Assembly (NCBI RefSeq): GCF_001548675.1
Contig: NZ_CP010834.1
Coordinates: 1,771,501-1,835,500, forward strand
Length of the DNA stretch: 64,000 nt
Reading direction: 5' to 3'
Source: Methanobrevibacter sp. YE315
GTDB lineage: Archaea > Methanobacteriota > Methanobacteria > Methanobacteriales > Methanobacteriaceae
The notes under the pieces were generated by a model, which was not told the DNA's origin, did not search any database, and was given only the letters and a program-made list of their open reading frames with translations. The translations under genes and the position numbers were made by a program. Shown here one piece after another: positions 4,178 through 55,348 of the stretch (position 1 is its first letter; each line of letters opens with the position of its first letter).

Positions 4178-5356
4178 ATGACAGATATAAATGAAATTTT
4201 AATAAGAGAGTATGTAGCCACCCGTGGACTCTCACAGAGTTCATACCATGGCATGAAATACACATTAGCTCATTATTGCAGATTTCAAGGCAAAAATCTA
4301 CAAGAGCTACTGGATGAAGCAGATGCTGAAGAAGAAGCAGGCGTTCGTTGGAAAAAAACAAAACTCAAAAAAAGATTAACAGCCTACATGAACTACTGCA
4401 AAGAAACACTAACATTAAACAGCGCTAAACATTACCTTAAACTGGTTAAACAATTCTATCATCACAACGATATAGAAATACATAAGCTGCCACCTTTCAA
4501 TGACAAGAATGCATTAATGAGAGAACCTATTACAGCTAAAGATCTTCCAACACGTGAAATATTACAACAAGCTGTTGAAATAGCTGAACCATTGATGAAA
4601 GCTTTAATATTATTTTTAGTAAGCAGCGGCATGAGTAAAGTAGATGCAAGAAATCTTACCATACAGAATTTCCTTGATGCAACAAAAAGATATCATGACG
4701 AAGATGATGATATAATGACCGCAATAGCCAAAATGAAAGAATTTGAAGGACAGCTGATTCCTACATGGAACAGCAGAAGAAGCAAAACAAAAAAATTCTT
4801 CATTACCTTCAATACCGATGAAGCAACACGATACATCATGGCATATCTTGAACTTAGAAATGAAAAGCTAAAAGATAACCCTGAAAATGGCCAAACAGAA
4901 TTAAAACCTCATGATAAGCTATTTAAAATATCTACACATTACTTTACAATGAAATTCGGCCAATTGAATGATGCTTTAAATTTAGGCACTGTTGGCGGAA
5001 GACCTGAGGAAGGCATTAAGGGATATAACCGTTTAAGAGGACACATGCTTCGTAAGTACCATGCAACCAATCTTAAAAAGCATGGAATGGATACATATTC
5101 AATCAATGTAATGCAGGGCAAAAGTAACGGTGCTGTCAATGATGTTTACTTTTTTGAGGATGAAGATGCATTATTCCGAGAGTACATTGAAGCTATTGAA
5201 GGTGTTTTGATAATGACTGACGTTAGAGAGTACAATATCTATTCACCCGAATATGTTCAAATGGAAGAGGAAAACAATGAATTAAGAAACGAATTGACAG
5301 ATATGAGAGCCGACCTGGACTTCCTTAAAAGGAAATATGAGGAAGGCTCATCATGA
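4178..5356 (+). CDS. Tyrosine recombinase / integrase
   Basis: A 392-residue site-specific recombinase that would integrate and excise the element. Residues 1-110 are an N-terminal SAM-like DNA-binding region. The catalytic domain follows, with HMLR at 289-292 (box II His and Arg) and VYF with nucleophile Tyr324. The box I region reads SGMSKVDARNL (150-160), where the canonical Arg after the Gly-hydrophobic pair is Ser153, with Lys154 next and Arg158 beyond; this form is seen in archaeal virus integrases but weakens the assignment of the first catalytic Arg. Residues 360-388 form a coiled coil. Its promoter region carries inverted TACTTAC repeats, and a hairpin-T terminator follows at once. 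Confidence 0.9.
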   Translation: MTDINEILIREYVATRGLSQSSYHGMKYTLAHYCRFQGKNLQELLDEADAEEEAGVRWKKTKLKKRLTAYMNYCKETLTLNSAKHYLKLVKQFYHHNDIEIHKLPPFNDKNALMREPITAKDLPTREILQQAVEIAEPLMKALILFLVSSGMSKVDARNLTIQNFLDATKRYHDEDDDIMTAIAKMKEFEGQLIPTWNSRRSKTKKFFITFNTDEATRYIMAYLELRNEKLKDNPENGQTELKPHDKLFKISTHYFTMKFGQLNDALNLGTVGGRPEEGIKGYNRLRGHMLRKYHATNLKKHGMDTYSINVMQGKSNGAVNDVYFFEDEDALFREYIEAIEGVLIMTDVREYNIYSPEYVQMEEENNELRNELTDMRADLDFLKRKYEEGSS

Positions 5357-11877: not shown

Positions 11878-13287
11878 TCATGTGGAATACCACCTATCAA
11901 CATTAACTCTTTGAGTTTGAACTTCAGAAACTATTTTTTCATATCCTCCTGTAAACGCTACCACACAATCATCATGAATAGCTTCATTAGGATAAGCTGT
12001 AATTTTTTCTAAAAATTCCATCGCCCACTTTTTCGTAAACCCTGTCCTATCCTTTCCAACCAGGAAAATTCCATTCTTTTGAATATCGGCCGAAACTCTT
12101 CTTGCCCTATCAATTTTATTTTCTCTTGAGTTACCAGCACCTGTAGTGAACCCTCTTCGGTTTAACTCATCAATTATCAGTAATCCAAAGTTTTTACCCG
12201 TACTTCCATCGAGTTCAATATATTGCACATCTGACTTGTCACGTGCTGCAGTATTGAGAATTTCATTGATCAAATTTCGTGACTCAAGCTGAAATTCATA
12301 TGAATCTAAGATGTAAATATTTCCAGATAGATCTTTAGCTAGCAATACTCCCGCAGTATAATCTGGGTCACTTCCTCTCAGTTTATCATCATTCAGCACT
12401 TCAGTTGCAGCAAGATCCCAATACCTAATAATTCTTATGATTGGTATTTTCATGTATTCATCATGAGAGATTATGTGGAAGTCTGATTCATCAAATAGCT
12501 GACCTTTAACTGAAGCATACCAGTTACCGTTCATTAACTGTTCTCTTGTGACTCTATCCAATCCCATTAAGTATTCTTCATAGTCTTTTCTATCCAAATA
12601 GATATTATCCAAATAGCTGGAACTGATGAATCTTATTTGTGATTTGTCCTGAATGTCAGTGTCTATTTTTTCTATGAATCTTTCACGTACCCATTTGTTT
12701 CCACGCTTACCAGGATTACTAGAGCACATTAACTGTGTAGGAAGTTTATTGTCCTTAGTTTTCCTTACCCTTGACCTCATATAGATATATTTGAATCTTT
12801 CAAGTTGTGTTAGCTCATCAATTCCAATGAATTGATATTCTGAACCTTGATATGTATCCAAGTCATTAATGTTACGTAAATATCCAAATGTTAATGAATT
12901 ACCGTTTGGAAATGTCCATGAATGTTCTGTTCCATCCCACTTTGGCCTAATAGCTGGGTCTCTTTGAATCTCTTTTCTGTTAAGCCATTGACTAGCTTTG
13001 TGAATTAAAGCTCCTTTACGCTTCAAGTCAGATAATGTACGTCTCAAGATTAACGCATGGTATTCATTGGCATCATCCTGAACATAGAACAATGCTCTCA
13101 TTAACAGACTTGTTGATTTGGAACCTCCTGCAGCACCCCCAATCAAGACTTCTTTTTCTGTGGCCAGTATCATCTCAGCCTGCTTTGGAAATGGATTGAA
13201 TGGTATGTATGGATTTTCATATACGCATTTCTGAAGAATAGCTTTATCTCTAGCATCTAAATAGAATTCATCATTTTCATTGTACAT
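11878..13287 (-). CDS. terL: Terminase large subunit (DNA-packaging ATPase-nuclease)
   Basis: 469 residues from ATG 13287 (a TTG at 13311 and ATG at 13296 are alternatives). Walker A GGAAGGSKST is at 50-59, Walker B FIGIDE at 153-158, and a C-motif-like SSNPG at 189-193. The RNase H-like nuclease has Asp291 in YWDLAATE, Asp360 in IELDGS and Asp439/Asp440 in IHDDC. It cuts and pumps DNA into the prohead. It overlaps the small subunit gene by 11 bases. Full length and intact. Confidence 0.92.
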   Translation of the reverse strand: MYNENDEFYLDARDKAILQKCVYENPYIPFNPFPKQAEMILATEKEVLIGGAAGGSKSTSLLMRALFYVQDDANEYHALILRRTLSDLKRKGALIHKASQWLNRKEIQRDPAIRPKWDGTEHSWTFPNGNSLTFGYLRNINDLDTYQGSEYQFIGIDELTQLERFKYIYMRSRVRKTKDNKLPTQLMCSSNPGKRGNKWVRERFIEKIDTDIQDKSQIRFISSSYLDNIYLDRKDYEEYLMGLDRVTREQLMNGNWYASVKGQLFDESDFHIISHDEYMKIPIIRIIRYWDLAATEVLNDDKLRGSDPDYTAGVLLAKDLSGNIYILDSYEFQLESRNLINEILNTAARDKSDVQYIELDGSTGKNFGLLIIDELNRRGFTTGAGNSRENKIDRARRVSADIQKNGIFLVGKDRTGFTKKWAMEFLEKITAYPNEAIHDDCVVAFTGGYEKIVSEVQTQRVNVDRWYST

Positions 13288-14089
13288 TGTTATCATCAAT
13301 TTGTTTAGCAAGGATTTCTATTTCATTCATGATGTCCTTCTGTGAGATTTCAATTTTTTTATCCTCTAACTCTAACACACGGTTTTTGAATAGTCTGTCC
13401 ATTTCATCTTTGAATAATCTGTTTTTAGCTTCAAATGCTTTGACTGACAATTCCAGATATCTGATTTTTAATTCTGTAAGATCAATTAAGTATCTGGCCA
13501 AACTTTTTTCATTGGCATTATGTCTTACTTCCTGATCCAGTTTTGCAAAGTCAATTTCAATACCTACAGCATTTTTGGTAATCTTGTCAAGATTGTCAAG
13601 TCCTGTTTTGATGTCAGTGACTTGTTGCTGAAGTATTGTATCAATAGCTAAATCAATATTGTCCTGATGAACGTTATTGTCAGTAATTTGTCTTTGAGTA
13701 ATAGCTCTGTCCGTTAATGCTTCCTTGTTTTTTGCTCTTGGGTCTTTTTCATTATCTGTTAGATGATATTTCTTTTTGAATCTGGAGAATGTTGCCCTAC
13801 TTACTTCAAAGTTGTGTTCATCGTCCAACCACCTTCTGACGCTTTCATCAGTAGCCCCTTGAGTTTTCATTACTTGGATTTCATCCAGAAGTGTTTCCAG
13901 GAAATCCACTTTAGTTAGTTTTAATCCTGCTTTGAATCTTCTAAAGGTAGTTTCCGGAACTTCAAAATCATATTTTGTTTTTAACATTTCTATGATTTCC
14001 TTGTTGCTCATTGCCTTCTTGCAGCAGTTTATTATTTCCCGTTCGTGCTGTTCTAAAAAGAAAATGACATCTGAATTTCCTCTCCCCAT
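13277..14089 (-). CDS. terS: Terminase small subunit-like DNA-binding protein
   Basis: A 270-residue protein. The first 120 residues hold two or three similar helix-turn-helix units (FEVPETTFRRFK and FEVSRATFSRFK), followed by a long coiled coil that would drive ring assembly. Position, overlapping the large subunit start, fits the recognition subunit. It is longer than most small terminases (about 150-200 residues) because of the repeated N-terminal HTH. The start has only a weak binding site. Confidence 0.72.
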   Translation of the reverse strand: MGRGNSDVIFFLEQHEREIINCCKKAMSNKEIIEMLKTKYDFEVPETTFRRFKAGLKLTKVDFLETLLDEIQVMKTQGATDESVRRWLDDEHNFEVSRATFSRFKKKYHLTDNEKDPRAKNKEALTDRAITQRQITDNNVHQDNIDLAIDTILQQQVTDIKTGLDNLDKITKNAVGIEIDFAKLDQEVRHNANEKSLARYLIDLTELKIRYLELSVKAFEAKNRLFKDEMDRLFKNRVLELEDKKIEISQKDIMNEIEILAKQIDDNNVQ

Positions 14090-35071: not shown

Positions 35072-35106
35072 AATTAATTATACTTAGAAAATAATAAGTA
35101 TAAAAT

Positions 35107-35619: not shown

Positions 35620-35736
35620 ATATATTATTTGAACCATCACCCATACTTTATTTTAACATATACTCCCTTAATTAGATTATTTAAAAAGTATTTATTAACT
35701 TAAAATTCAATATGTATATAATAGGAGTGAAATATT

Positions 35737-35976
35737 ATGGAAAATTTAGAAAATATCTATGATACAATAAACACAATTGCAGAAGACCCACGAATTGATA
35801 TTTCTAAAATAGACGATTACACTTTTGATGTGGTTATTAATGGTGAGTTAATGGATTCATTTGAAAAACTTGGAGAAATCCAAAAGAAGATTGAAGAAAG
35901 TTGTTCTGATGAATACCAACTTAAAACTGTTTATGGTGATGGGCAAGATGCAAGATTAATTCTAAAAAAGAATTAA
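35737..35976 (+). CDS. Small hypothetical protein
   Basis: 79 residues with AGGAGTG before the ATG. A helix-strand-helix-strand pattern (YTFDVVINGELM, KLGEIQKKIEESC, YQLKTVYGDGQDARLILKK) suggests a ferredoxin-like mini-domain. No family recognised. It ends the plus-strand island, facing the winged-helix gene. Confidence 0.5.
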   Translation: MENLENIYDTINTIAEDPRIDISKIDDYTFDVVINGELMDSFEKLGEIQKKIEESCSDEYQLKTVYGDGQDARLILKKN

Positions 35977-35982
35977 ATATTT

Positions 35983-36249
35983 TTATTCTAAATTTTTAAC
36001 TACTTGCTCACCTTTATCTGTATGCCTATACAATCTTCCTTTTCTAACTTCTGGATTAATGCATTCAACCAATTCATGTGCTTTTAGTTCAGATAATACT
36101 TTTGAAATATGATTTGTCATAATCCCTGAATCTTTAGCAATGGCCGTTGGTATTTTAACATCACCATCTAAAGATTTCATTACTTTTGTTCTATAAGTAG
36201 AAATTTTTACATAACTAATTTCTTTTAACATTTCATCTGATAATTCCAT
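35983..36249 (-). CDS. Winged-helix transcriptional regulator
   Basis: 88 residues. Helix-turn-helix about 32-56 (PTAIAKDSGIMTNHISKVLSELKA) and wing GRLYRHTDKGEQ. Same family as 30622 and 63704 (all share NHxS-x6-LK then a GR/RxYxxTxxG wing). It closes the fibre operon on the minus strand, nine bases downstream... that is, just before the fibre gene that ends at 36258 in map order, yet transcribed after it. Confidence 0.72.
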   Translation of the reverse strand: MELSDEMLKEISYVKISTYRTKVMKSLDGDVKIPTAIAKDSGIMTNHISKVLSELKAHELVECINPEVRKGRLYRHTDKGEQVVKNLE

Positions 36250-36257
36250 ACTATCAC

Positions 36258-38267
<2,010 letters not shown>

Positions 38268-42511: not shown

Positions 42512-42577
42512 GTTATTCCCCCACCAATAATATTATATTTTTTATTATATATTTTATTATATAAATTATTATTTATT

Positions 42578-43354
42578 TTATATAAAATATACATTTTGGC
42601 CATCATCACAACCTTCCCATTCCATGTATAACTTGTTGTCTTCCCAAACGAACCTTACATTATTAACAATAGCTACATCCGGAAGCTCACAATAAGTAAC
42701 CCCATCTGCATCTTTAACATAATTGGCCTGCGCCATAATGTTGGATTCTGATGGTACAATCATATTAACAACATGAGTTATCTCATCCTGTTCGAAACTG
42801 CAATCTCCAAGATCAATACAGTTCTGAGATTCAGGATACATTTCAACCTCAGACATTTGTCTATAGACCCTAATATAATCCGTATGTTCATTTTCCGTTA
42901 GATTAACGATTGACAATAGCCTTAAGTCATGGCCTTCAATAGGATTACATTCACCGTCACTGTCAATGTAAATTCTTGTATTAGGCAATATATCTTCAGC
43001 CACTGGCCTTTTGAGTTTCAATCTGAAAACATCACCTAACACGGCCACAGCAACCAATGTTAATCCTGAAGTCTTAACCTGGACTTTACCTAAAAGATAA
43101 CCGAAAGCCAATTCACCTGCCTGAGCTTTCCTAACTATTGTATGCTCCATAGTCGAAGACATATCTAAAGTTACCATATCTCCGACTGCACATTGATTTG
43201 AACAAATCCAAGCAGTATGTTCATCATTAACATATGTTCTTTCGCCCTCATCAAGAAGGCAAGCTATTATATCCATTTTCTCTGTATGTTCTAGGCCTGT
43301 TGGATATCCACGACCATGTCCAATTGTTGAATTTACATCATAATCAATAATCAT
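42578..43354 (-). CDS. Decoration-like protein, paralogue family member 3
   Basis: 258 residues. The central LVAVAVLGDVFRLKLKRPV aligns with the VLVLG-x-L-x-RLKLASG motif of 23323 and 40394. The N-terminal 100 residues keep the same strand order (ACLLDEGERTYV against TFLLDEG). A C-terminal 80-residue addition ends in aspartates and aromatics (LYMEWEGCDDG). Probably a virion surface protein. GGGTGTT precedes the ATG. Confidence 0.55.
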   Translation of the reverse strand: MIIDYDVNSTIGHGRGYPTGLEHTEKMDIIACLLDEGERTYVNDEHTAWICSNQCAVGDMVTLDMSSTMEHTIVRKAQAGELAFGYLLGKVQVKTSGLTLVAVAVLGDVFRLKLKRPVAEDILPNTRIYIDSDGECNPIEGHDLRLLSIVNLTENEHTDYIRVYRQMSEVEMYPESQNCIDLGDCSFEQDEITHVVNMIVPSESNIMAQANYVKDADGVTYCELPDVAIVNNVRFVWEDNKLYMEWEGCDDGQNVYFI

Positions 43355-43355
43355 T

Positions 43356-44546
43356 TTAAAACACCCAATCCCAATTATGGTTAATTATTTTATCTGGAAT
43401 ATGAAGTCCAGTATCGTCCATGTCATTATCATTAGCGTTCCACATTAACATTGAGCCTTTGTAGGCCTTAGTGTATTCATGACTTCCTTTATATAGGCGA
43501 ATGCCAGTTTTATCTCTTTTTGTTACTGTTACTGTTGGAATGCAATTGGCTGCAAACAATGGAGATGGAAATACTAACAACCATTTTAGATCAACATAAT
43601 TGAAATCTTCGAAATCAGTTGTAGCATAAAACGTTGGTGAGATCTGAATTTCAGCATAATCAGTTTCATAAATCTTACCAGTATTGTTTCTGCTGAATCC
43701 TTCCAGATAATCTGAGCTGTTTGAGGTTCCAGTACCTACACGGCCGTGACGATGATATTGTTTATAATTTCCTTCCTCATCACTTCCTGAAGCATAAGCA
43801 TCAAATGAACTGGCCATTACTAAAGTCTTAGCACCATTAAACATACAATAGTCCTTTTCCTCATCGGCCCAGTAGCATATTGTGCCTTTCGTATCTACTC
43901 CATAAGTTGTGAGACTGCCATCAACTTGCATCATGACATTTCCAAAAGTTGAACCATGATATGTTGCATTATCATTAACATCAACATTACCACCAATGCG
44001 TTTAAATCTAGCAACAGTAACCCTATTGTTGCTTAAAGATTGACCTGAAGCAAATGTTGTGATTAAATCAGTTGGAGAGGTTCCGTCAAGGTTAGGGACG
44101 AATCTAGCTCTTAAAAAATGACCTCCATCTGTTGAGTCATTGTTGATACTTAAACCTGAGTAGTTCATGAAAAATTGTGAGTATGTATCAGAGTTTGCAT
44201 CAAACATTAACACTTCATTACCAGTTGATAATGTGCTACTGAAGGTTGTTGATGTGTCATAAACATCCAGCAATAGCTTTGTGGTTTGTGAGATTTGGCC
44301 AACAGGAACTCTTGCAAGTATCGCTGCGCCTTGTGATTCATAAGCAGAAATATATAATACCTGACATTCAGTACCATTAGTGGTTTTGATTTTCAGATTT
44401 TTCAAATCACTTCTGAAATAATTGGAGTATGCACTGCTGGCTAAATTATCCAAAAAGATATAATCATAACTGGATGAATAGCTACCGCTCCGTTGGTTGT
44501 AATTGCTCATGATAATATTGATTTGTAATTTTTTCTGTAATGTCAT
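43356..44546 (-). CDS. Virion surface protein, probable fibre or receptor-binding
   Basis: About 396 residues from ATG 44546 (ATG 44510 gives MSNYNQRSG and is a fair alternative). The open frame to 44606 runs through a TATA box (TTTATATAAA near 44570) and is not translated in full. Rich in Ser, Thr, Asn, Tyr; beta-rich throughout, ending GSMLMWNAND and NHNWDWVF. No domain named with confidence. First gene of the fibre operon. Confidence 0.55.
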   Translation of the reverse strand: MTLQKKLQINIIMSNYNQRSGSYSSSYDYIFLDNLASSAYSNYFRSDLKNLKIKTTNGTECQVLYISAYESQGAAILARVPVGQISQTTKLLLDVYDTSTTFSSTLSTGNEVLMFDANSDTYSQFFMNYSGLSINNDSTDGGHFLRARFVPNLDGTSPTDLITTFASGQSLSNNRVTVARFKRIGGNVDVNDNATYHGSTFGNVMMQVDGSLTTYGVDTKGTICYWADEEKDYCMFNGAKTLVMASSFDAYASGSDEEGNYKQYHRHGRVGTGTSNSSDYLEGFSRNNTGKIYETDYAEIQISPTFYATTDFEDFNYVDLKWLLVFPSPLFAANCIPTVTVTKRDKTGIRLYKGSHEYTKAYKGSMLMWNANDNDMDDTGLHIPDKIINHNWDWVF

Positions 44547-44725
44547 GATTAATATTTTATTATCCTTTTTATATAAATTATATAATAAAAAAAGTAATAT
44601 TGACATTAATGATAGTTATTTGAGATTTGAAAATTATTTTGGGAAATGTTATATACATATGATTTATACAAATTATATTATAATCACATTTATCTTAGCA
44701 GTAATTTTTAAAAAAGGTGAGAAAG

Positions 44726-45922
44726 ATGGTTGATTACTTTTGTCCACGTTGTGAAAACACAGATGTAAAAGTTATTGGGCCTCAATTAATATTTTGTCCA
44801 GATTGTGATTTAGAATTATTTGTATTTAATTTTAATACCATTGTAGAAGATGTAAATAGATTAAATGAAATTAATAGAAATTTAGCAATTGGTTCTGGTT
44901 TAGATTTGGATTTAATTAATGAAAAGATTGGCATTTTAGTTAATTTATATAGATATAAAGAAGCAACAGAGATGTGTGAAAATTTATTTGTTTTAGAAGC
45001 TCCTTCTATTATTCCAAACCACATTGATAATATTCTCATAAATGAAGATGTTCCTGACGATATTGTATGTAGATTAGAAATTTTAAAAGCTAAAACTTTA
45101 TTGTTTTTAAACACCGGCATTCATAAGCGCAATTTAGACAATGAAGATGAATTATTTGAAGCTGCACAATTATATATACAATCCCCCAACTTTGAAGAAG
45201 ATGCCCTTAGATGTTGTGATTTGCTGTTAAAAAGGGATGGAAATAAAACAGACTATTTAAATGTGATGGCGGAATTATACTTTAGAACATATGATTATGA
45301 ACTTGCATTAAACTATTATAATCAATCAGGCATAATGAAATATGATGATTTTTGGTTATGGTTTAACAAAACTAGAGTCTATTTAATTCTTAAAAATTAT
45401 GATAAAGCATTAGAATGTGGCGCCATAGCAATTAATACACAAAATGTTGATCATAAATATCTTCCAGAATTGTTTAACATGTTAGGATTGGAATTTGATC
45501 TTGACAACATTTCTTATTTAAACGAGCATTATAAAAAATATTCAATTTCTATTTCTGAAATGGACTCTCTATGTGATGATGCTGAAACTCTATTAGCTAA
45601 TAATAACTTGCAAGGAGCACTAGCTAAATATGATAAATGTATATTGCTTTTTGACTGCTTTTCTGATGTTTGGTTTAATAAAGGATTGATCCATTATCAT
45701 CTGCAACAATATGAACAAGCAATATCCTGTATGGAAAAAACAATTGGAATAAATGAACGTGCTTCTAAAGCTTGGGCATTAAAAGCCGCATCACTACTTG
45801 CAATTGAGAAATATCGTGATTCTAAATATTGTGCTAAAAAAGCATTAAACTATGATAAAAATGATTTAACTGCTAAAGGAGTATTAGAATTTTTTAAATC
45901 TAATCCATTAGCTGCATTATAA
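44726..45922 (+). CDS. Zinc-ribbon plus TPR protein (operon gene 1)
   Basis: 398 residues from ATG 44726 after AAGGTGA. Residues 6-29 are a ribbon (CPRCEN...FCPDCD). The rest is helical repeat with TPR units, clear at 170-260 and 300-375 (ALAKYDKCILLFDCF, AISCMEKTIGINERA). It heads a four-gene operon ending at 50954, all of whose products carry zinc ribbons. TPR plus ribbon suggests an adaptor that gathers partners, perhaps the helicase-nuclease of gene 3. Confidence 0.75.
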   Translation: MVDYFCPRCENTDVKVIGPQLIFCPDCDLELFVFNFNTIVEDVNRLNEINRNLAIGSGLDLDLINEKIGILVNLYRYKEATEMCENLFVLEAPSIIPNHIDNILINEDVPDDIVCRLEILKAKTLLFLNTGIHKRNLDNEDELFEAAQLYIQSPNFEEDALRCCDLLLKRDGNKTDYLNVMAELYFRTYDYELALNYYNQSGIMKYDDFWLWFNKTRVYLILKNYDKALECGAIAINTQNVDHKYLPELFNMLGLEFDLDNISYLNEHYKKYSISISEMDSLCDDAETLLANNNLQGALAKYDKCILLFDCFSDVWFNKGLIHYHLQQYEQAISCMEKTIGINERASKAWALKAASLLAIEKYRDSKYCAKKALNYDKNDLTAKGVLEFFKSNPLAAL

Positions 45923-45978
45923 TTAAAAAAGTATAAATACGGAATGATAAATTTTTATATTTAATAAACGTGATAAAT

Positions 45979-46248
45979 ATGGAAATTGAAAAGATATTAT
46001 GGATTCCTGATGAATGTCCTGCATGCGGGGTTAAACTTCAAAAAGGTTCAACTAAATGTCCAAATTGCAATTATGATTTATTCAATGAATTAAATAAAAG
46101 ATGTCCAAAATGTGGAAAAAGAATTCCTTTGGGATCTAAATTTTGTATAAGATGTGGAAATGATTTAAAAAAAAGTAAATGCAATAAATGCGGTTATGAA
46201 AATGAAAAAACTTCAAAATTCTGTATTAAATGCGGTAATGTATTATAG
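45979..46248 (+). CDS. Small triple zinc-ribbon protein (operon gene 2)
   Basis: 89 residues from ATG 45979. Five CxxC pairs and one C-x2-C-like end give about three ribbons: CPACG/CPNCN, CPKCG/CIRCG and CNKCG/CIKCG. No other domain. Ribbons of this kind bind zinc and mediate protein or nucleic acid contact. Nine bases before the helicase start. Confidence 0.72.
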   Translation: MEIEKILWIPDECPACGVKLQKGSTKCPNCNYDLFNELNKRCPKCGKRIPLGSKFCIRCGNDLKKSKCNKCGYENEKTSKFCIKCGNVL

Positions 46249-46257
46249 GGTGATTCA

Positions 46258-49200
46258 ATGGTGAAATTAAGTCCAAAACAAGAAAAAATTGTATACTATG
46301 ATGGTCCTAATCCATTAAGTGTTGAAGCAGGACCCGGTGCTGGAAAAACTAGAGTAATTATTGAAAGAGTAAAATATCTTTTAAATGAGAAAAAAGTTGC
46401 TCCTGAAAGTATGCTAGTAATCACTTTTACAAGAAAAGCAGCTGATGAACTTAAAGATAGGCTGTCAAAAGATGATATTGCAAAAAGTGACATTGATTTA
46501 ATGCAAATTTCAACCATCCACGGATTCTGTTCAAGAATCCTACAAGAAAGTGGAGCTATTGGTTTTGATGTTATTGATGATGATTTAAATGAGAAAAATA
46601 ACATGTTTATTTCAAAGCACCTGAAAGATTTAGGTTTTGTTGATGAATTTACTGTTAAACCACGTGATGTTAGAGATATTGTTAGAAAATATAATGAATA
46701 CACAACTTTTAAAGTTGATACAAGATGTTTAACTGAATACATTAAAGAAACTAGGCCAATGAGTGTTGAGTATCTTACTTTTGTAAAAAATTATATGGAA
46801 GAGAACGATGGAAAATTTCCATTTAATGAAATACATGATGATAAGGAGCTTAAAAAATCATATTATAATGCAAAATATTTAAAAATAGCTGAATCTTATC
46901 CTAAATATCTACAACTTCTTGAAGAAGAGAATTTGACTGATTTTTCTTTAATGCAAGTAAATACATTGAAACATTTAGAGTTAAATCCAAAAACTCAATT
47001 TACAAATGTTTTAATTGACGAGTTCCAGGATACTGACCCTGTACAGATGAAAATATTTGCCACATTAATGGAGAATGCAGATTCATTTATGGTAGTGGGA
47101 GATGTTGAACAAAGTATTTATGGATTTAGAGGTTCAATTGAAAACTACTTTAAGAAATTATATGACGATCACGGAGATAATGTTGAGAAAATGGATTTAT
47201 CAACCAATTATCGTTCAACTAATGAGATTATTGATTTTTCAGAAAAATATATTTACGACCAAAAGATTAAGCATTCCAGTAAAAGTGATGCTGATGGTGC
47301 GAGAAATGTTTCAAGAGATATTTACTATATGATAAGTGATGATAACAACTCAGAAGCAGAACAACTTGTTAGCTTAATTTTAAATTTAAAAAACACTAAT
47401 AAAATTGATGATTATTCTGAAATTGGAATTTTAGCCAGATCAGTTACAAGTGAAAATAACTGTATTAATCCATTAATTGAAAAACTTAAGGAAAATAATA
47501 TCCCATATCAAGTTAAAGGTAGAAGTGATTTACTTGAAAGAGATGAGATTAAATCAATATTAACTTTATTATATTACATTATCCAAGATGATGATGAACA
47601 TAGTCCTATTTTTAATGGTTGGGAACTTGATTGGTTAAATCTAAAAGCATTTACTGGTGAAAACTTCAATCAAACATTAGTTAACCTTTCCGATGAAACA
47701 AAAGACATTTTAAACTCTGTCCATGATAATTTTGAAGCAGAAGTTATTGCTACAGAAAAAGAAGTTTATTTAGAAATGACTGGTAAAAAAAGCAGAGTTT
47801 CTAAGTTTACAGGAGTACTAAATAGAGATGATGATATTAAAGCGGAAATATTTAGACGTGTTTCAAGACCTATGATAAATCATCAAAATCTCTTAAAATG
47901 GGGAGTTACAAATACTGATGATTTAACATTCTTTTATCTTTTGGAAAATATTAAAAATGACTACCTGAATGAAGATATTCCATGGGAAGAGAAACCAAGT
48001 ATTTTAAATTTATATCTGCAACTTCTAACAATTACTGATTATTTGGATGAAGAATTTATTAATGCTGATGAAAATAAACATCAAGTTGAAAATATTGCTC
48101 TTTTAAGCAATACATTATTTAATTATGAACAAGTTAGAAATCCTAAAGATTTAGCAGGTGCATTCTGGTTCTTATATCATAATATTGATGAATATGGTGC
48201 ATATGCTGAAGGTGAAGGGGTTCAAATAATGACAGTTCATAAATCTAAAGGTTTAGAATTCCCAGTCGTCATTGTCGCATCTTTAAGTGAGGGCAAGTTT
48301 CCAATGAAGTTTAAAGATCCTAATCCTCCAAGTGGTTATGCATTTATTGGTGGTAAAATAAGACCGGTTTATTATTCCCCGAATCCTTGTCTTGAATATA
48401 AACCATTTGGGAAAACATTAGATGAGAATGGTGTTTTAATTGATGAAAAGACACATGAACAAATGGCTCATGATGAAGAAGAAGAACGTATTGTTTATGT
48501 TGCAATAACAAGAGCAAAAGACACTTTAATCTTATCAAACATTTCTCCTGAGGGATCTGAGGATTTATTCGATAAAGCATTTAAATATCTTGATTCTAAT
48601 TTAGATATTAAAACTAAAAAACAATACTTTGACTTAGTTCCAAAGGGTAATGAAAAAATACAACATTTCATTGACTCCAATGATTATTGTAAACCGTTAA
48701 GAAATAATTTTGAAATCATTGAACCTACCGTGTGTGAAAAAGATGAAGTTGAAGAAGAACCCGTGCAATTAAGTTTCACATCTTTAATGAATTATCAAAC
48801 ATGTCCTTTAAAATATAGGCTTGCAAATGATTTTGGTCTTAAAACAACTGACACTCGCCGTATGAGTGATGGTATATTCATACATAAAGCATTTGAAGTA
48901 ATTAACAAACTCATTAAAGAAAATGACAATGTTTATATTGGTGATGAAAAGGTAATATCAACTGTAACTAATTTATTTAACAAATCTAAATTAGAAGAAA
49001 CTCCTAATGAAAATGATTCTCAGAAATTAGCTAGAATCACAGAAGATATTCTATATTACTACCACAACGAAGGAAAAGATTTAGAAATCATTGATTGTGA
49101 AGTTCCATTTTACATTAAAAAAGATAATTATAGTTTAAATGGAGTAATTGATTTAATATATAAAACCAAGGATGGAAAAATTGGAATTTTAGATTACAAA

Positions 49201-49608
49201 AACACTAAATCTGCTAACAAGTATCTTGAAAAGTATACCAAACAATTATATACCTATATTTTAGGGTTAAGTGATGAAAATCATAGATATGCTGGTTTAG
49301 ATATTGGGGAATTAAAAATTTATGCAATTAAATCCAAAGAAGCGAAACCTATTCCAATCAATCAAATTGAAATAGACGAACTTGCACAAGACATTAAAAC
49401 CACCGCTCAAAATATTGGAGATTGTAATTTTTCATCAGCAAAAGATAAACATTGTGATCAATGTCAATATGCCATGATTTGTAAAGGGAAAAAACCAGAT
49501 ATAAAATTACCTCCTAAACAAGAAAGTGGAGCCAAGTTTTGTTTTAATTGTGGAAATAAATTAGAGGCAGGTATGAAATTCTGTCCAGAGTGTGGTCAAA
49601 AATTATGA
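46258..49608 (+). CDS. UvrD-type helicase fused to RecB/AddB-type nuclease and zinc ribbon (operon gene 3)
   Basis: 1116 residues with GGGTGATT before the ATG. SF1A helicase: Walker A GPGAGKT near 25-31, TRKAADELK, LIDEFQDTDPVQ near 253, QSIYGFRGS, MTVHKSKGLEF near 660 and VAITRAKDTL near 745. The C-terminal nuclease starts SFTSLMNYQTCPLKYRL near 840, has GVIDLI...ILDYKN near 962-980 and CDQCQYAMIC near 1066, so four Cys could hold an Fe-S cluster as in AddB and Cas4. It ends in a Cys4 ribbon (CFNCG/CPECG). A single-chain DNA-end processing machine. Confidence 0.88.
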   Translation: MVKLSPKQEKIVYYDGPNPLSVEAGPGAGKTRVIIERVKYLLNEKKVAPESMLVITFTRKAADELKDRLSKDDIAKSDIDLMQISTIHGFCSRILQESGAIGFDVIDDDLNEKNNMFISKHLKDLGFVDEFTVKPRDVRDIVRKYNEYTTFKVDTRCLTEYIKETRPMSVEYLTFVKNYMEENDGKFPFNEIHDDKELKKSYYNAKYLKIAESYPKYLQLLEEENLTDFSLMQVNTLKHLELNPKTQFTNVLIDEFQDTDPVQMKIFATLMENADSFMVVGDVEQSIYGFRGSIENYFKKLYDDHGDNVEKMDLSTNYRSTNEIIDFSEKYIYDQKIKHSSKSDADGARNVSRDIYYMISDDNNSEAEQLVSLILNLKNTNKIDDYSEIGILARSVTSENNCINPLIEKLKENNIPYQVKGRSDLLERDEIKSILTLLYYIIQDDDEHSPIFNGWELDWLNLKAFTGENFNQTLVNLSDETKDILNSVHDNFEAEVIATEKEVYLEMTGKKSRVSKFTGVLNRDDDIKAEIFRRVSRPMINHQNLLKWGVTNTDDLTFFYLLENIKNDYLNEDIPWEEKPSILNLYLQLLTITDYLDEEFINADENKHQVENIALLSNTLFNYEQVRNPKDLAGAFWFLYHNIDEYGAYAEGEGVQIMTVHKSKGLEFPVVIVASLSEGKFPMKFKDPNPPSGYAFIGGKIRPVYYSPNPCLEYKPFGKTLDENGVLIDEKTHEQMAHDEEEERIVYVAITRAKDTLILSNISPEGSEDLFDKAFKYLDSNLDIKTKKQYFDLVPKGNEKIQHFIDSNDYCKPLRNNFEIIEPTVCEKDEVEEEPVQLSFTSLMNYQTCPLKYRLANDFGLKTTDTRRMSDGIFIHKAFEVINKLIKENDNVYIGDEKVISTVTNLFNKSKLEETPNENDSQKLARITEDILYYYHNEGKDLEIIDCEVPFYIKKDNYSLNGVIDLIYKTKDGKIGILDYKNTKSANKYLEKYTKQLYTYILGLSDENHRYAGLDIGELKIYAIKSKEAKPIPINQIEIDELAQDIKTTAQNIGDCNFSSAKDKHCDQCQYAMICKGKKPDIKLPPKQESGAKFCFNCGNKLEAGMKFCPECGQKL

Positions 49609-50954
49609 AATTCTGTTGGAGTTGCGGAGCAGAATTAAGGGGAACAAATCCCCAATTCTGCAGCGAATGTGGAATAAAATTAGATGATGGAAAACAAACA
49701 CCAACACCAACACGGACTGTTGGAGGAACAGGCAATGTTAATGTAACTATTACTAATAGTTTCCGAGAAGCTCAGAGATTATACCAAATTAATGAATATG
49801 AACTTGCATTAACATACATTGATGATGCAATTGAAGAAGATCCGGAAAACTACAATTATTATAATTTAAAGGCATTAATCTTAAAACAGTTGCATCGCTT
49901 TGATGAACATGCAAAAATGGTTGATAAATCATTAAAAATAAAAGAAAATCTTGAAGCAAGATACATGATTGCATTTGGATTGGCTATGGGTGAAGATAAA
50001 CTTGCTATTGAATTATATAGGGATGCTGAAAGCAATTATAATGGTAATGCCGAATATTATGCTAAATTGGCAAGCTTATATTACATAACCTCTGATTATA
50101 ATCAGGCGATTAAAGCAGCTGATAAATCATTGAGTATTGATTCTAATAATGGACTCGGACATTTTTATAAAGGTTGTGCAAATGCTGCTAAAGAAAATTT
50201 TAAAATATCAAATGAATCATTTGAACAAGCATTAAAATACTTAGACATATCAAGTGAAGAATATCCAGCAATTTACTTTTTTAGAACATATAACTTCATC
50301 GGAATGATGAATGAATTTTTGGAAAGAAATAATCAAAATATACTACCAATGCTTTCGCAAGCAGTAAAAGACTCACAAGAAGGATATAAAATATTTTCAG
50401 CACATTATAACAAGAATAAAGAATTCGTTTTCCTTAATTTTAGCCTTGATTTGATTCCATTAGTGTTAAATTACTTAGTTCAAAACAATTACTTCTTTGT
50501 AGATTTCCATACTGGATTTGGAATAAAAGTAGCACATAGTTTACAAGACATAACAGATGAATATGTAAAACTTAGAAGTCAAAACACAATTGTTTTAAAA
50601 ATGAAAGGTGACATTTACGGAAGATTAGGTTTTCATGATAAAGCAGTTGAATGCTTTGATGCAGTCCTAAAAACAAAAGATCCAGATTTCAGAGTATTAG
50701 GTTACAAAGGTCGTTCATTACTTGAACTAGGACGCATACAAGAAGCTGAAAATTGTTTAAAACAAATGTATATATTTTTAGAAGATGAAATTTCACGTGA
50801 CCCTAGAAATATCTATTTAATTCGTGAAAAGGCAGTAACATTGGCTCAATTGGGTAGAAAAAGAGACGCCTTAAAATGTTATGACGAAATCTTAAGAATT
50901 GATCCAACAGCCCCATTTGTGGAACAGGATAAAATAAATATTATGCGCCTTTAA
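49605..50954 (+). CDS. Zinc-ribbon plus TPR protein (operon gene 4)
   Basis: 449 residues. Its ATG overlaps the stop of the helicase gene (ATGA), so translation is coupled. A ribbon at 3-24 (CWSCGAEL...FCSECG) is followed by a Thr-rich linker and about ten TPR units (YELALTYIDDAIEEDPEN to ALKCYDEILRIDPTAP). Same plan as gene 1 of the operon, not close in sequence. Probably a scaffold or regulator of the helicase-nuclease. Confidence 0.78.
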   Translation: MKFCWSCGAELRGTNPQFCSECGIKLDDGKQTPTPTRTVGGTGNVNVTITNSFREAQRLYQINEYELALTYIDDAIEEDPENYNYYNLKALILKQLHRFDEHAKMVDKSLKIKENLEARYMIAFGLAMGEDKLAIELYRDAESNYNGNAEYYAKLASLYYITSDYNQAIKAADKSLSIDSNNGLGHFYKGCANAAKENFKISNESFEQALKYLDISSEEYPAIYFFRTYNFIGMMNEFLERNNQNILPMLSQAVKDSQEGYKIFSAHYNKNKEFVFLNFSLDLIPLVLNYLVQNNYFFVDFHTGFGIKVAHSLQDITDEYVKLRSQNTIVLKMKGDIYGRLGFHDKAVECFDAVLKTKDPDFRVLGYKGRSLLELGRIQEAENCLKQMYIFLEDEISRDPRNIYLIREKAVTLAQLGRKRDALKCYDEILRIDPTAPFVEQDKINIMRL

Positions 50955-51023
50955 TTATTTAATAGTAAATAATAATAGTTTAAATTGTCTGAATGTATTG
51001 TATCATCCAGAACTTAATCATTC

Positions 51024-51998
51024 CTAATAGCAATCACTCGCATAATAACTATCAACTGCACGTTCTACTAATTCCATTAAATAATATTTCACAGTTTCAT
51101 ACTCGTTTTGACCAATATAGTAAAAATTACCTGCTTCAAAAAAACCATCATCAATTATTCCTCGTCTTTTTAATTTGTCAGCAATATCAGATAATTCAAA
51201 ATTACCTAAATCAATGAAATAACTATTGCCAATTTTAATTTGATTATATCTACTTTCATCACCCATCATATCAATTTCAATTATTAATTTTTCTTGTGGA
51301 TTATCCCTTCCAAATAAATCAAATGCATTATAATCATAATGCATAACTACACCAAAAGCATAAGCCTTACCCTCTTTTAATACATATATTTGAGTATCAG
51401 GATCCAAATTATTAATTATTGTTTTAAATTCACCCACAGTAAAATCATATTTTCTTGACAAAGGCCTTGGAATTGATATTTCATTTGGAGTATTTGATTC
51501 ATTCCTAAAAGTGAGAGGTATTGAGCTACTTCTAAAGTTAGATCTTGAATTTCCTCTATTAAAATTATTTTCTTGATTAATTGATAAAAATATTTTTTTA
51601 GAATCATGAGACTTAAAAATATTTGTAACTTTATATTCCTTCCTATTTTGCTGAATATAAATTACAGAATTTGGATTAAAATTAAATTTAGTTAAATCTA
51701 AATGATTATACCCTTGGAAACTATCTATTATTGCAGGAGTGTTAGTATCATATTGTAAAATTTCAAAACCAAACTTTTTTTCAATAGCATTAACTTTATT
51801 ATAAAAATATTCATAATCTTCATTTGAAGATTGTTGACCTAATTCATACATTTCTTCAATATCATTAATTTCAAATCCTAATTGTAAACAAGTAATAAAA
51901 AGACTGCCCTTTTTTTCTAAAGTACTTAAAATAATATTCATAGGATTAATATAAACTTCACCTTCATTTATCACTCTTTCTTTGTCATTTAAAAACAT
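51024..51998 (-). CDS. Hypothetical cargo protein
   Basis: 324 residues with AGGTGAG upstream. Residues 1-90 are acidic and helical; 100-180 form a Ser/Asn-rich linker (NRGNSRSNFRSSS). The C-terminal 140 residues are an alpha/beta domain with FTVGEFKTIINNLDPDTQIYV and FGVVMHYDYN. No family recognised. It converges on the four-gene operon and may belong to the same cargo unit. Confidence 0.5.
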   Translation of the reverse strand: MFLNDKERVINEGEVYINPMNIILSTLEKKGSLFITCLQLGFEINDIEEMYELGQQSSNEDYEYFYNKVNAIEKKFGFEILQYDTNTPAIIDSFQGYNHLDLTKFNFNPNSVIYIQQNRKEYKVTNIFKSHDSKKIFLSINQENNFNRGNSRSNFRSSSIPLTFRNESNTPNEISIPRPLSRKYDFTVGEFKTIINNLDPDTQIYVLKEGKAYAFGVVMHYDYNAFDLFGRDNPQEKLIIEIDMMGDESRYNQIKIGNSYFIDLGNFELSDIADKLKRRGIIDDGFFEAGNFYYIGQNEYETVKYYLMELVERAVDSYYASDCY

Positions 51999-52161
51999 TG
52001 AAATCCCTTCTCACCTATGTTTATTGATTTGTAATTAAAACCAACATATTTATTAACAATATATTTACATTTTATTATTCTCAGATAATAAAAATTTCTA
52101 TGAAAATTGGCAAAATAATTAATTATTTGGATTAATTCAAACAGACATGCCCACGTTTTAA

Positions 52162-52243
52162 GCGAGCCAATTCGCCCAGGCCGACCCCACGCCGACCGAA
52201 GGGAGGCGTGTGTGGGAGGCCTGGGTGAATAGGATTGGCGAGC
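52162..52243. repeat. Large branched hairpin, first of the hairpin array
   Basis: GCCAAT (52166) pairs with ATTGGC (52234); CGCCCAGGCC (52173) with GGCCTGGGTG (52218, one G-T pair); CCCAC and GCC inside with GTGGG and GGC. It opens a GC-rich locus in AT-rich DNA. Confidence 0.75.
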
Positions 52244-52257
52244 ATATACTGTATGGA

Positions 52258-52283
52258 GGAACCGACCCTCGCCGGTCGGTTCC
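52258..52283. repeat. Hairpin type I, copy 1
   Basis: GGAACCGACC / GGTCGGTTCC, ten perfect pairs, loop CTCGCC. Same stem as 52557-52581 with a different loop. Confidence 0.85.
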
Positions 52284-52340
52284 GTAAGGCAAACAATGTA
52301 AAAACCATTTTTAAAATAATCAAGATTTTCATTATGTTCC

Positions 52341-52359
52341 GTCCGACCGAAGGTCGGAC
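52341..52359. repeat. Hairpin GTCCGACC-GAA-GGTCGGAC
   Basis: Eight perfect pairs, tri-loop. A weaker stem GCCTT/AAGGC over GAGCGAAGCGA follows at about 52364-52385. Confidence 0.8.
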
Positions 52360-52427
52360 TGGACGCCTTGAGCGAAGCGAAAGGCCAATACTATAGACCT
52401 AACAATAATAGCCATGTCAGGTTCCGA

Positions 52428-52452
52428 GGAACAGGGGCTTGTCCCCTGTTCC
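52428..52452. repeat. Hairpin type II (loop CTTGT), copy 1
   Basis: GGAACAGGGG / CCCCTGTTCC, ten perfect pairs. Flanked by TCCGA and by CGAGTTTATGGATTT, which recur at copy 2. Confidence 0.88.
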
Positions 52453-52491
52453 GAGTTTATGGATTTGAAAATATTAGTTTGTCGACTCCGA

Positions 52492-52794: not shown

Positions 52795-53763
52795 CTATAT
52801 TCTAGTTCGGTTGAATCCCATATCCTTTAGAATTTTATTATATTCCTCACGTGTCGTGAAGGAAGGCGCATCCTCATCTCCAGTGCTGCCCGTAAATCCA
52901 GTTTCTTCTACATCACCAGAGTTTTCAGGATTTCTTCCTCCAGGAGTTGAACCATCATTACTAGCTTCAATTTTAATTCTTCTTTCAGCCAGTTTTTCCA
53001 TTAATTCCATATCAACATCACCAGATAATAGCTTATCAATTATCTCTTTATCCTGAGCGTTTTCATTATAATTAAAGTTATATTTAGTTTCGTACTCTTT
53101 TATTTTCCTTTCATTTTCAGCTTTTCTTAATTCAGATAATTCTTTTAGAATATCATCTTTAGAATCTATAAATTCCTTATTTTCTTCAATAGCTTTTTTA
53201 ATCTCATCATACTTCTTAGATTCTTCTTTCAAATTATTAATTTCATCCTGAAGCTTTCCAATCTCAGCATCCTTACCTTGCAGCTTTTCCAATAATAAAG
53301 TTGTAGCTACATTTGTATCTTTAGTAGGTGTTTGAGGTTGTGGCTGTGGAGCAGGCGGTTCAGGATTAGGATTTCCAGTTGCACTTCCATCACCAGCAAT
53401 ATCTGAATTTAACAAGGTAATTTTTCTTGGACTTTTAGTTACACCAACATCTATTAAGCTCATAGTATCAATTCCAAATGAATCTCCTTTATCTTTTAAT
53501 AAGACATCAACTTTAGGAGATAGACCTTTTCCTTCCATATCCAATTCGTCCGGAACTTCAATGAATAGCTTACCTTCTTCATATTCAATATTATTTCCAA
53601 TACCAACGTAGATATTGTCATGCTCTGAAGTTAGTGGAATTCCTCCACGGTAGTTTTCAGCTATTAGCTTAAGATCATCTTCAGTCCATTCAACAGGTTT
53701 GTCGAGTCTATCGTCCAGGTCGGAATAGTCATAGGATCCGACTTCAAAAAGTTCATGCCTCAT
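52795..53763 (-). CDS. Prohead protease/scaffold-like protein
   Basis: 322 residues from ATG 53763. The N-terminal 125 residues (VEWTEDDLKLIAENYRGGIPLTSEH...SFGIDTMSLIDVGVTKSPRKITLL) resemble the protease or protease-derived domain of Mu-like and tailed-virus prohead proteins. A Pro/Gln linker and a long coiled coil (155-260) typical of internal scaffolds follow. The gene is just downstream of the portal gene. I see a possible Ser/His pair but cannot confirm catalytic residues, so it may be scaffold only. Confidence 0.6.
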   Translation of the reverse strand: MRHELFEVGSYDYSDLDDRLDKPVEWTEDDLKLIAENYRGGIPLTSEHDNIYVGIGNNIEYEEGKLFIEVPDELDMEGKGLSPKVDVLLKDKGDSFGIDTMSLIDVGVTKSPRKITLLNSDIAGDGSATGNPNPEPPAPQPQPQTPTKDTNVATTLLLEKLQGKDAEIGKLQDEINNLKEESKKYDEIKKAIEENKEFIDSKDDILKELSELRKAENERKIKEYETKYNFNYNENAQDKEIIDKLLSGDVDMELMEKLAERRIKIEASNDGSTPGGRNPENSGDVEETGFTGSTGDEDAPSFTTREEYNKILKDMGFNRTRI

Positions 53764-53827
53764 TATTATCACATTTTTATTATATTATTTATTATATATT
53801 TTATTACTTATTTTATATAAATCTTTA

Positions 53828-55138
53828 TTATACTTCAACACCACTTTCAGTTACAATCCTTTCACCAACAGGCTGTTCCTCTTCAAAGTTACTTAGATAG
53901 TTCTTATAAATCTCATCACCTTCAGAAGACAGTTCCATAATGTATCTTAAAACATCATCTCTTGAATAGCTGAAATAAATATCTAAAGTTTCACTAATAC
54001 CCATTAACTCCAATTGCATATTCAATAGCTGATTGCAATACTTTAACACCCATTTCTGGTCGTTGGCCACATTAACAATAAACCCAGTGATAGCTGAATC
54101 GTTAATGTACTCGGCCACATTCTGATTAGACTTTTCATTACCTGCCTGAGACTGAGGAGTTACAAAAGTTCTTAAAATATTATTTCTAAAGATTTCAGTT
54201 TGCCTCGTATAGTCAGATTGGTAGTTGTTACCCCCTAAGATTTTAGATTCTATTCCAGGAGGCACAATAGCTACATTACTCCCAGCAGTAGTTCCATAAT
54301 CAGCATAAAGATTTTCCTTAGCAGTGGATGAAAGTTCAGTAATATAAGGCTGGCCATTCGCATCCATTGCAGGCTTAACTTCAATAATATTATCCTTATT
54401 AATTCTCTCTACTTGGTTTCTCTCCAAATTACATTTGTGATATATATCATCAAGGCAATTTAGGATAATACTTTGAGCTTCACAATAAATCTCATTATAC
54501 ATGAAGTTAATAACCTCTTCAGGTTCGTACTTGACCGTTAATGTTCCTTCTTCAACACTAACATAATTAGCGAACTCTTCAGGAGATCCCGCAACAACAT
54601 CTTCGGGCATCTTATGTAGATATAACTGTACTTCATTATCATCATTAAATTCTTTCTTTAATCCATAACCTTTAGCACCGATTTCCAAAAATATAGGTTT
54701 AATATATTTACCTATAGATTTATCCCAACGTTGCACAGGTTTAATTAGACCTTCCCCATCAACCATTCCACCTTGCAGAATATTTTTAGCAATTTGGCTG
54801 ATGTCAATTTTTCTTGCCCATAAGATTAAAGTTAATTTCTGCTCTTGAGATAACTTATTTTCCTTATCCACAAGAACCATATTAACATTAGCTTTATCAA
54901 TCCTATTTTTCAAAATTCCTGAAGTATAACCGTCAAGCTTTACAGCATAACGTGCATTAGCTATTGTCTTATTAATTACAGGTGGAAGTGCATCAGGCAA
55001 GTCAAGACCAGTATTTATCCCATCAGTTTTAGGCTGCCTTTCATCCTCCCCCCAATAGCTACGTTTTGTATTGTACTGCTCTACACGATTATTCAATAGT
55101 CTAGTTTTAATATAATCAGTAATTCCCATAATAATCAT
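53828..55138 (-). CDS. Portal protein
   Basis: 436 residues. The pattern of an alpha-helical wing, PPVINKTIANARYAVKLDGY, a GEGLIKPVQRWD strand region, a central helix ILNCLDDIYHKCN and VPPGIESKILGG...TRQTEIFRNNILRTFVTPQSQ is characteristic of SPP1/phi29-like portal proteins. It forms the dodecameric DNA entry ring. A TTTTATATAAAAAA box about 32 bases upstream suggests a leaderless transcript. Rightmost gene of the element. Confidence 0.78.
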   Translation of the reverse strand: MIIMGITDYIKTRLLNNRVEQYNTKRSYWGEDERQPKTDGINTGLDLPDALPPVINKTIANARYAVKLDGYTSGILKNRIDKANVNMVLVDKENKLSQEQKLTLILWARKIDISQIAKNILQGGMVDGEGLIKPVQRWDKSIGKYIKPIFLEIGAKGYGLKKEFNDDNEVQLYLHKMPEDVVAGSPEEFANYVSVEEGTLTVKYEPEEVINFMYNEIYCEAQSIILNCLDDIYHKCNLERNQVERINKDNIIEVKPAMDANGQPYITELSSTAKENLYADYGTTAGSNVAIVPPGIESKILGGNNYQSDYTRQTEIFRNNILRTFVTPQSQAGNEKSNQNVAEYINDSAITGFIVNVANDQKWVLKYCNQLLNMQLELMGISETLDIYFSYSRDDVLRYIMELSSEGDEIYKNYLSNFEEEQPVGERIVTESGVEV

Positions 55139-55348
55139 TCATATTTTTTATTATATTATTTATTATATTTTTTATATAAAATAAGTAATAAATTATTTGG
55201 TACATTATTTTAAAATAAATATTTTCGATTGGTAACTATACAAAACCAGTTCATTCGTTTTCATACGAACAATTGTAACATTTATTTGCCAAAAAGTTCA
55301 GATTATTAGTTGTAAAAATACAGCGAGAAAAGTAGTAACTATACAAAA

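What the first reader, a model, noticed from the sequence alone, without database searches (positions are those of the whole stretch)
44726..50954. Four-gene zinc-ribbon/TPR/helicase-nuclease operon carried by a virus
Seen: four plus-strand genes with gaps of 56 and 9 bases and an ATGA overlap. Every product carries at least one Cys4 ribbon; genes 1 and 4 are ribbon plus TPR, gene 2 is ribbons only, and gene 3 is a UvrD-type helicase with RecB/AddB-type nuclease, possible Fe-S cluster and terminal ribbon. Known: UvrD/RecB nucleases process DNA ends, and UvrD-like helicases appear in defence systems such as Gabija. Inference: a ribbon-mediated complex in which TPR scaffolds recruit one helicase-nuclease, for defence against other viruses or for DNA-end processing. 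I know no named system with this composition.
Basis: partly seen in the sequence, partly recalled or inferred. Interest (0 to 1): 0.82.

Follow-up and report, generated by a model that had tools for sequence, protein, structure and literature searches.

The report
Archaeal provirus helicase-nuclease defence cargo
A tailed virus integrated in a methane-producing archaeon carries, at a site where its relatives swap unrelated cargo, four zinc-ribbon genes built round a DNA helicase-nuclease whose relatives sit beside known antiviral genes, so it is probably an antiviral kit that the virus gives its host.

Summary
In detail: four intact plus-strand genes (44726-50954), each with a Cys4 ribbon, two with TPRs. 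Gene 3 has complete UvrD-helicase and Fe-S PD-(D/E)XK nuclease motifs.

The operon plus one convergent gene form a 7.5-kb, 28% GC insert (44610-52145) in a Methanobrevibacter-type tailed provirus (portal 93% identical to vir323). Related proviruses carry unrelated cargo at exactly this site (GmrSD restriction, adhesin-like proteins) or almost none, so this is cargo, not virus core.

Gene 3 belongs to a helicase-nuclease family found in 65 of 152 genomes of the phylum. Its relatives neighbour LlaJI/McrBC, type I R-M, DRT and Zac genes, or are fused to TPR, caspase or DNA_alkylation domains. The closest relative (65% identity) is overlapped by a Csm6-like CARF-HEPN gene and faces a HIRAN gene. 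Ribbon genes within three genes: 27/54 loci against 44/286 controls (p about 1e-7).

The exact four-gene set was found nowhere else. Genes 1 and 4 are orphans.

Best reading: a virus-borne antiviral system in which a modular helicase-nuclease uses ribbon-TPR partners as sensor and scaffold. Defence is likely (about 0.65). Ribbon docking is inference. No named system fits.

The parts
44610..52145 (.). Cargo insert (7.5 kb, 28% GC against 36-38% in the flanks) in the provirus late region
   Evidence: DNA homology to nine related (pro)viruses stops at 44599-44661 and resumes at 52113-52155; the sister provirus in the same genome has only 0.8 kb here
44726..45922 (+). Gene 1: N-terminal Cys4 ribbon plus TPRs, 398 aa
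   Evidence: no homologue at E<=1e-12 in 152 genomes of the phylum
45979..46248 (+). Gene 2: small protein of ribbons only (six CxxC)
   Evidence: Zn_Ribbon_1 9e-21, three stretches; alternative GTG start at 45970
46258..49608 (+). Gene 3: UvrD-family helicase with Fe-S PD-(D/E)XK nuclease and C-terminal ribbon, 1116 aa
48766..49485 (+). Gene 3 nuclease domain (residues 837-1076) with Fe-S cysteines C849, C1066, C1069, C1075
49534..49605 (+). C-terminal ribbon of gene 3; absent from the other 30 relatives aligned and from its closest relative L354
49605..50954 (+). Gene 4: N-terminal Cys4 ribbon plus TPRs, about 450 aa
51024..51998 (-). Gene 5: 324-aa protein of unknown function, convergent, in the same insert; may or may not belong to the system
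   Evidence: no full-length match elsewhere in 67 genus genomes; shares a short motif with a small ORF just after the helicase of L046
43356..44606 (-). Left flank: conserved virus late gene
   Evidence: 62-95% identical in related proviruses
52795..53772 (-). Right flank: prohead protease
   Evidence: homologue annotated in vir323
53828..55138 (-). Portal protein of the provirus
   Evidence: 93% identical to vir323 portal; 38 of 67 genus genomes have a match
4178..5356 (+). Integrase near the left end of the provirus
   Evidence: PHROG integrase 1.8e-10
11878..13311 (-). Terminase large subunit of the provirus
52146..52483 (+). Conserved structured non-coding element at the edge of the insert
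   Evidence: no Rfam match

Best explanation
The operon is an antiviral (superinfection-immunity) cargo of a temperate archaeal tailed virus. Shown: it is an insert at a cargo-exchange site. Shown by homology: gene 3 is a helicase-nuclease with complete catalytic motifs, of a Methanobacteriaceae family whose members sit beside, or are fused to, interchangeable accessory modules in defence islands. Inferred: the ribbon-TPR proteins (genes 1 and 4) and the ribbon-only protein (gene 2) are this copy's sensor and scaffold modules. They hold gene 3 inactive or bring it to DNA ends or fork-like intermediates of competing viruses or plasmids, with the matching ribbon on the C-terminus of gene 3 as the docking tag. 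Gene 3 then loads at a DNA end, unwinds it and degrades it through its Fe-S nuclease.
For: Insert with sharp borders shared by nine related (pro)viruses, nearly empty in the sister provirus, with other cargo elsewhere including GmrSD restriction. The provirus also carries type III R-M. Helicase and nuclease motifs are complete. Relatives of gene 3 lie beside LlaJI-type R-M, DRT UG5-nitrilase, type I R-M, PDC-S37/Hhe, ZacC and McrC. The closest relative overlaps a Csm6-like Cas02710 gene and faces a HIRAN gene. HIRAN genes lie within 1 kb of 5/37 relatives against 0.11 expected. A TPR, a caspase and a DNA_alkylation domain are fused to relatives. Ribbon neighbours: 27/54 against 44/286, and 14/29 in the replicate set alone. 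The gene 3 ribbon was probably gained in this lineage.
Against: The exact quartet was found only here. The TPR association is weak statistically. Ribbon neighbours are scattered on the tree as chance would scatter them (19 changes against 19.4 in shuffles), and against HsdM neighbourhoods the excess is only p about 0.01. The same virus site also carries adhesin-like genes, so cargo is not always defence. No model of the complex; AlphaFold models of genes 1 and 4 were poor. No infection data.
Confidence: 0.6

Rival explanations
1. Viral DNA metabolism: the helicase-nuclease processes the virus's own DNA ends during replication, recombination or packaging, like a virus-encoded RecB/AddA, with ribbon-TPR proteins as assembly factors.
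For: UvrD/RecB-type enzymes process DNA ends; the genes lie inside the late region of a virus.
Against: The cargo is absent or replaced in every related provirus examined, including vir323, so it is not needed for the viral cycle; it is transcribed opposite to the late genes. Most relatives lie in cellular islands.
Confidence: 0.12
2. Gene 3 is a stand-alone defence enzyme; the ribbon and TPR genes are unrelated regulators or lysogenic-conversion genes that happen to share the transcript.
For: Ribbon genes are common in this genus and partners of relatives vary widely. Nhi is a known single-gene nuclease-helicase system (PMC12904381).
Against: All four genes carry ribbons, including an added ribbon on gene 3; genes 3 and 4 overlap by ATGA; ribbon neighbours are in excess in two sets of loci; one relative carries a fused TPR domain.
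Confidence: 0.2
3. Host takeover or anti-defence: the virus uses the helicase-nuclease against host DNA or to disarm host defence.
For: Virus-borne nucleases can degrade host DNA (general knowledge).
Against: The cassette sits in an exchangeable cargo site of a provirus with its own GGTGA leader; relatives lie in cellular defence islands, where an anti-host role makes little sense.
Confidence: 0.06

Closest known systems
Gabija (GajA + GajB)
   Same: UvrD-family helicase; gene 3's best PADLOC hit is GajB, 4e-61, over the helicase domain
   Different: No GajA ATPase-TOPRIM; gene 3 is about twice as long, with its own Fe-S nuclease; partners are ribbon and TPR proteins
AddAB / AdnAB / RecBCD helicase-nucleases
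   Same: UvrD motor plus RecB-family nuclease on one chain; nearest solved structures are UvrD/PcrA, then AddA, a UvrD/Rep helicase of the AdnAB kind (6ppj/6ppr/6ppu; that name is from memory) and RecB
   Different: No second helicase-nuclease subunit; NCBIfam addA and recB scores far below cut-off; mobile cargo rather than housekeeping
Druantia III / ARMADA (YprA-helicase hubs)
   Same: The same idea of a helicase-nuclease effector with a separate sensor protein, and a hub helicase that swaps partners, often on mobile elements (PMC13192584, PMC12458937)
   Different: UvrD-type SF1 helicase, not YprA; no DruH-like protein seen
LlaJI/McrBC-type restriction, CoCoNuTs
   Same: Several gene 3 relatives lie beside LlaJI or McrBC genes; ribbons, HEPN and CARF also recur in CoCoNuTs (PMC11090510)
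   Different: No McrB or McrC in the window operon
DRT systems with RT-associated helicase
   Same: Gene 3 matches the RTasHel model, 9e-59; two relatives neighbour DRT UG5-nitrilase genes
   Different: No reverse transcriptase in the insert

Membership tests
Gabija | GajB-type UvrD helicase | tested here: inconclusive
   Helicase domain matches GajB models up to 4e-61, but the match covers only the motor; the protein is a helicase-nuclease
Gabija | Adjacent GajA (ATPase-TOPRIM) | tested here: not met
   Genes 1, 2 and 4 have no GajA match; their Pfam hits are ribbons and TPRs
AddAB / RecBCD | Helicase-nuclease chain scoring above the family cut-off | tested here: not met
   addA_Gpos 143.9 bits against 707.65; recB 148.5 against 696.05
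AddAB / RecBCD | Partner AddB, RecC or RecD subunit beside it | tested here: not met
   Neighbours are ribbon and TPR proteins
Druantia III / ARMADA | YprA-family helicase | tested here: not met
   Pfam and PADLOC place gene 3 in UvrD/SF1
McrBC / LlaJI / CoCoNuT | McrB-like motor and McrC or LlaJI nuclease | tested here: not met
   None in the insert; present only beside some relatives
DRT with RTasHel | Reverse transcriptase gene | tested here: not met
   None among the insert genes
Nhi | Single-gene nuclease-helicase matching the Nhi model | tested here: inconclusive
   Nhi not among the 25 best of 54 PADLOC hits; the rest were not shown
Methanobacteriaceae helicase-nuclease family (unnamed, defined here) | UvrD core plus Fe-S PD-(D/E)XK nuclease with C-(~216)-CxxCx5C | tested here: met
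   Motif-by-motif alignment of 31 members; closest member 65% identical over 1040 columns
Antiviral defence system | Protects a host against viruses or plasmids | not testable with these tools
   Needs an infection assay

The most novel reading that the evidence does not exclude
Gene 3 is one edition of an unrecognised antiviral family in Methanobacteriaceae: a constant helicase-nuclease 'hub' that swaps sensor and killer modules (Csm6-like CARF-HEPN, HIRAN, caspase, TPR, DNA_alkylation HEAT, DUF4145, McrBC/LlaJI). In this virus-borne edition, matching zinc ribbons on all four proteins are the docking code of the complex.
Probability: 0.35. Interest if true: 0.8.

Novelty: new variant of a known kind. 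Interest (0 to 1): 0.62.

Why it matters
Antiviral immunity in gut methanogens is little explored, and searches of the held literature found no paper describing this system. If right, this is a defence hub in which one enzyme is kept and its triggers are exchanged, one edition of it carried by a widespread temperate virus (portal in 38 of 67 genus genomes). The natural fusions and the added ribbon make the sensor-effector pairing directly testable. The cargo site gives a defined place in which to look for further systems of methanogen viruses.

Tried and rejected
The search for related loci with gene 3 alone in genome and viral contigs found no relative by its method; with the alignment the patterns were too generic and returned distant UvrD helicases. 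Genes 1 and 4 gave nothing in viral contigs. A first TPR profile built in the box was too insensitive and was replaced; it still misses single-repeat proteins that Pfam finds. AlphaFold models of genes 1 and 4 had pLDDT 55 and 53 and were not searched for folds. No att repeat found: only a 13-bp A/T-rich match. Rejected: viral replication gene (absent from relatives); Gabija (no GajA); an apparent ribbon in L363, which overlaps the Fe-S cysteines and is not counted as a fusion.
Full report
What is there. Genes 1 and 4 are an N-terminal Cys4 ribbon plus TPRs, gene 2 is ribbons only, and gene 3 is a UvrD-type helicase with a PD-(D/E)XK nuclease and a terminal ribbon. An alignment of 31 family members shows helicase motifs I, II, III, V and VI, the nuclease residues and the four cysteines of a Cas4/AddB-like Fe-S nuclease intact in gene 3. 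The terminal ribbon is missing from all 30 relatives in that alignment and from the closest relative found later.

Where it sits. The window is part of a complete 2.27-Mb genome. The best named hits of gene 3's family are Methanobrevibacter MAGs. The operon is inside a tailed provirus with integrase, terminase, portal, protease and collagen-like tail-fibre genes. The portal is 93% identical to Caudoviricetes sp. vir323, host Methanobacteriales, and has matches in 38 of 67 genus genomes. The provirus also carries a type III R-M system.

It is cargo. In related proviruses the gene order portal, protease, [variable site], 416-aa gene and following late genes is conserved, and the variable site differs between proviruses. 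DNA homology to nine related (pro)viruses stops at 44599-44661 and resumes at 52113-52155. The sister provirus in the same genome has 0.8 kb there, and vir323 has only small ORFs. The insert is 28% GC against 36-38% in the flanks. Cargo at this site elsewhere includes GmrSD restriction (L127) and adhesin-like surface proteins (Ig-like domains in L139, beta-helix in L140; L142 judged by its signal-peptide-like start and length only), besides unknowns. So the site is for lysogenic-conversion cargo, not for defence alone. The insert also holds a fifth, convergent gene of 324 aa (51024-51998).

The gene 3 family. Full-length relatives (E<=1e-150) occur in 65 of 152 genomes of the phylum, all in the same family. 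A separate 1220-1240-aa class has lost the nuclease residues. Neighbours of the active-type relatives include LlaJI/McrB-like R-M (L040, L051), an AAA_21 ATPase with a second unknown gene (clusters 1 and 2), DRT UG5-nitrilase (L046, L049), type I R-M (L049), PDC-S37/Hhe (L045), ZacC (L047) and McrC (L046). Fusions are telling: a C-terminal TPR domain (L371), an N-terminal caspase domain (L378, 3e-16), a C-terminal DNA_alkylation domain (L358, 1e-21) and a weak DUF4145 match (L380). The TPR stretch fused in L371 resembles a separate gene downstream of the helicase in L043 (1e-7 in a two-sequence comparison).

Closest relative. The tree puts gene 3 with L354_9 (65% identity, support 100). That gene overlaps by one base a 415-aa Csm6-like protein (Cas02710 domain 2.2e-33; Csm6 structures at 0.001 over residues 83-377) and faces a HIRAN gene (1.1e-8). 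HIRAN genes lie within 1 kb of 5 of 37 active-type relatives against 0.11 expected, and of none of 18 nuclease-dead ones. The expected number uses an approximate genome total and an estimate of 190 HIRAN genes, of which 150 were entered; the 37 relatives were listed by hand. Human HLTF HIRAN binds ssDNA and fork-like DNA (PMC4666394), which points to recognition of DNA ends or forks. Genes 1, 2 and 4 showed no HIRAN match in Pfam.

Do ribbon and TPR genes travel with gene 3? Same-strand ribbon genes within three genes: 13/25 loci in the first set, 14/29 in a second set taken afterwards from other genomes and genera, 27/54 together against 44/286 in sampled background (p 1.3e-7). Against neighbourhoods of another defence gene, HsdM, the excess is smaller (13/25 against 3/20, p 0.01), and HsdM's own partner genes fill the adjacent slots. 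TPR genes alone are rare (4/54 against 2/286). Loci are related to one another, so the p values are guides only. Ribbon-plus-TPR partners are seen at L046 (183 aa) and L047 (ribbon-TPR and HIRAN pieces of an apparently broken gene), and TPR-HIRAN at L037. On the tree the ribbon label is scattered (19 changes against 19.4 in shuffles): partners come and go. The exact quartet was seen only here; gene 1 has no homologue at E<=1e-12 in 152 genomes and gene 4 only weak TPR matches.

Mechanism. Shown: intact catalytic motifs, cargo status and defence neighbourhoods of relatives. Inferred: genes 1 and 4 are sensor or scaffold proteins, gene 2 a ribbon adaptor, and the ribbon tail of gene 3 its docking tag; the complex loads gene 3 on ends or fork-like intermediates of competing DNA. 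Druantia III offers a worked analogue of a sensor plus helicase-nuclease effector (PMC13192584), and YprA helicases an analogue of a hub that swaps partners on mobile elements (PMC12458937).

Novelty. It fails a defining feature of Gabija, AddAB/RecBCD, Druantia/ARMADA, McrBC/LlaJI and DRT. It works most like a helicase-nuclease effector with dedicated sensors. I call it a new variant of a known kind. Searches run in the held papers found no description of it, but that library is partial.

Noticed in passing
window 52146-52483 (+); L132, L126, L127, L133, L134, L138, L144, L145, L327: A conserved, GC-rich, about 340-nt structured non-coding element at the edge of the cargo insert, present in all ten sequences aligned: 70 pairs, 12 with changes on both sides (0/500 shuffles; slid controls 0-3), no Rfam match. 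G-U pairs favour the plus strand, opposite to the late genes. In several proviruses (L131, L137, L139, L141, L143) only one half matches, split at its A/U-rich middle, as if cargo had inserted there.
   Followed up: partly
window 14865-41215, e.g. 16915, 19099, 41201: Motif ACATTAACATTAACG occurs nine times (up to 2 mismatches) against 0.36 expected, all within the provirus; possible operator. Variants also lie in the empty site of L132.
   Followed up: no
window 23817-36258 and the matching part of L132, L134, L138, L144, L145: A second variable site in the same proviruses, holding type III R-M in the window and R-M-like genes in L132.
   Followed up: no
window 42531-42591, 44538-44618, 53758-53832, 55119-55197: A repeated stretch of about 45 bp upstream of several late genes, perhaps a shared late promoter or leader.
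   Followed up: no
L139, L141, L135: Fragments related to the provirus integrase (28-29% identity) lie near adhesin-like cargo, in L139 and L141 at the same site; they may bear on how cargo is exchanged.
   Followed up: no
L378:6280-12246 (-): A 1988-aa protein joins a caspase domain to the helicase-nuclease core and a long C-terminal region shared in part with L376 and L377.
   Followed up: partly
L055-L058 and similar loci: A 1220-1240-aa class of the helicase has lost the nuclease residues but keeps the Fe-S cysteines, with a fixed gene of about 282 aa just upstream and, in L055-L057, a TPR gene of about 300 aa downstream.
   Followed up: no
genus genomes G013, G028, G043, G046: HIRAN and Cas02710 genes also lie within a few kb of each other on contigs where this helicase family was not listed.
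   Followed up: no
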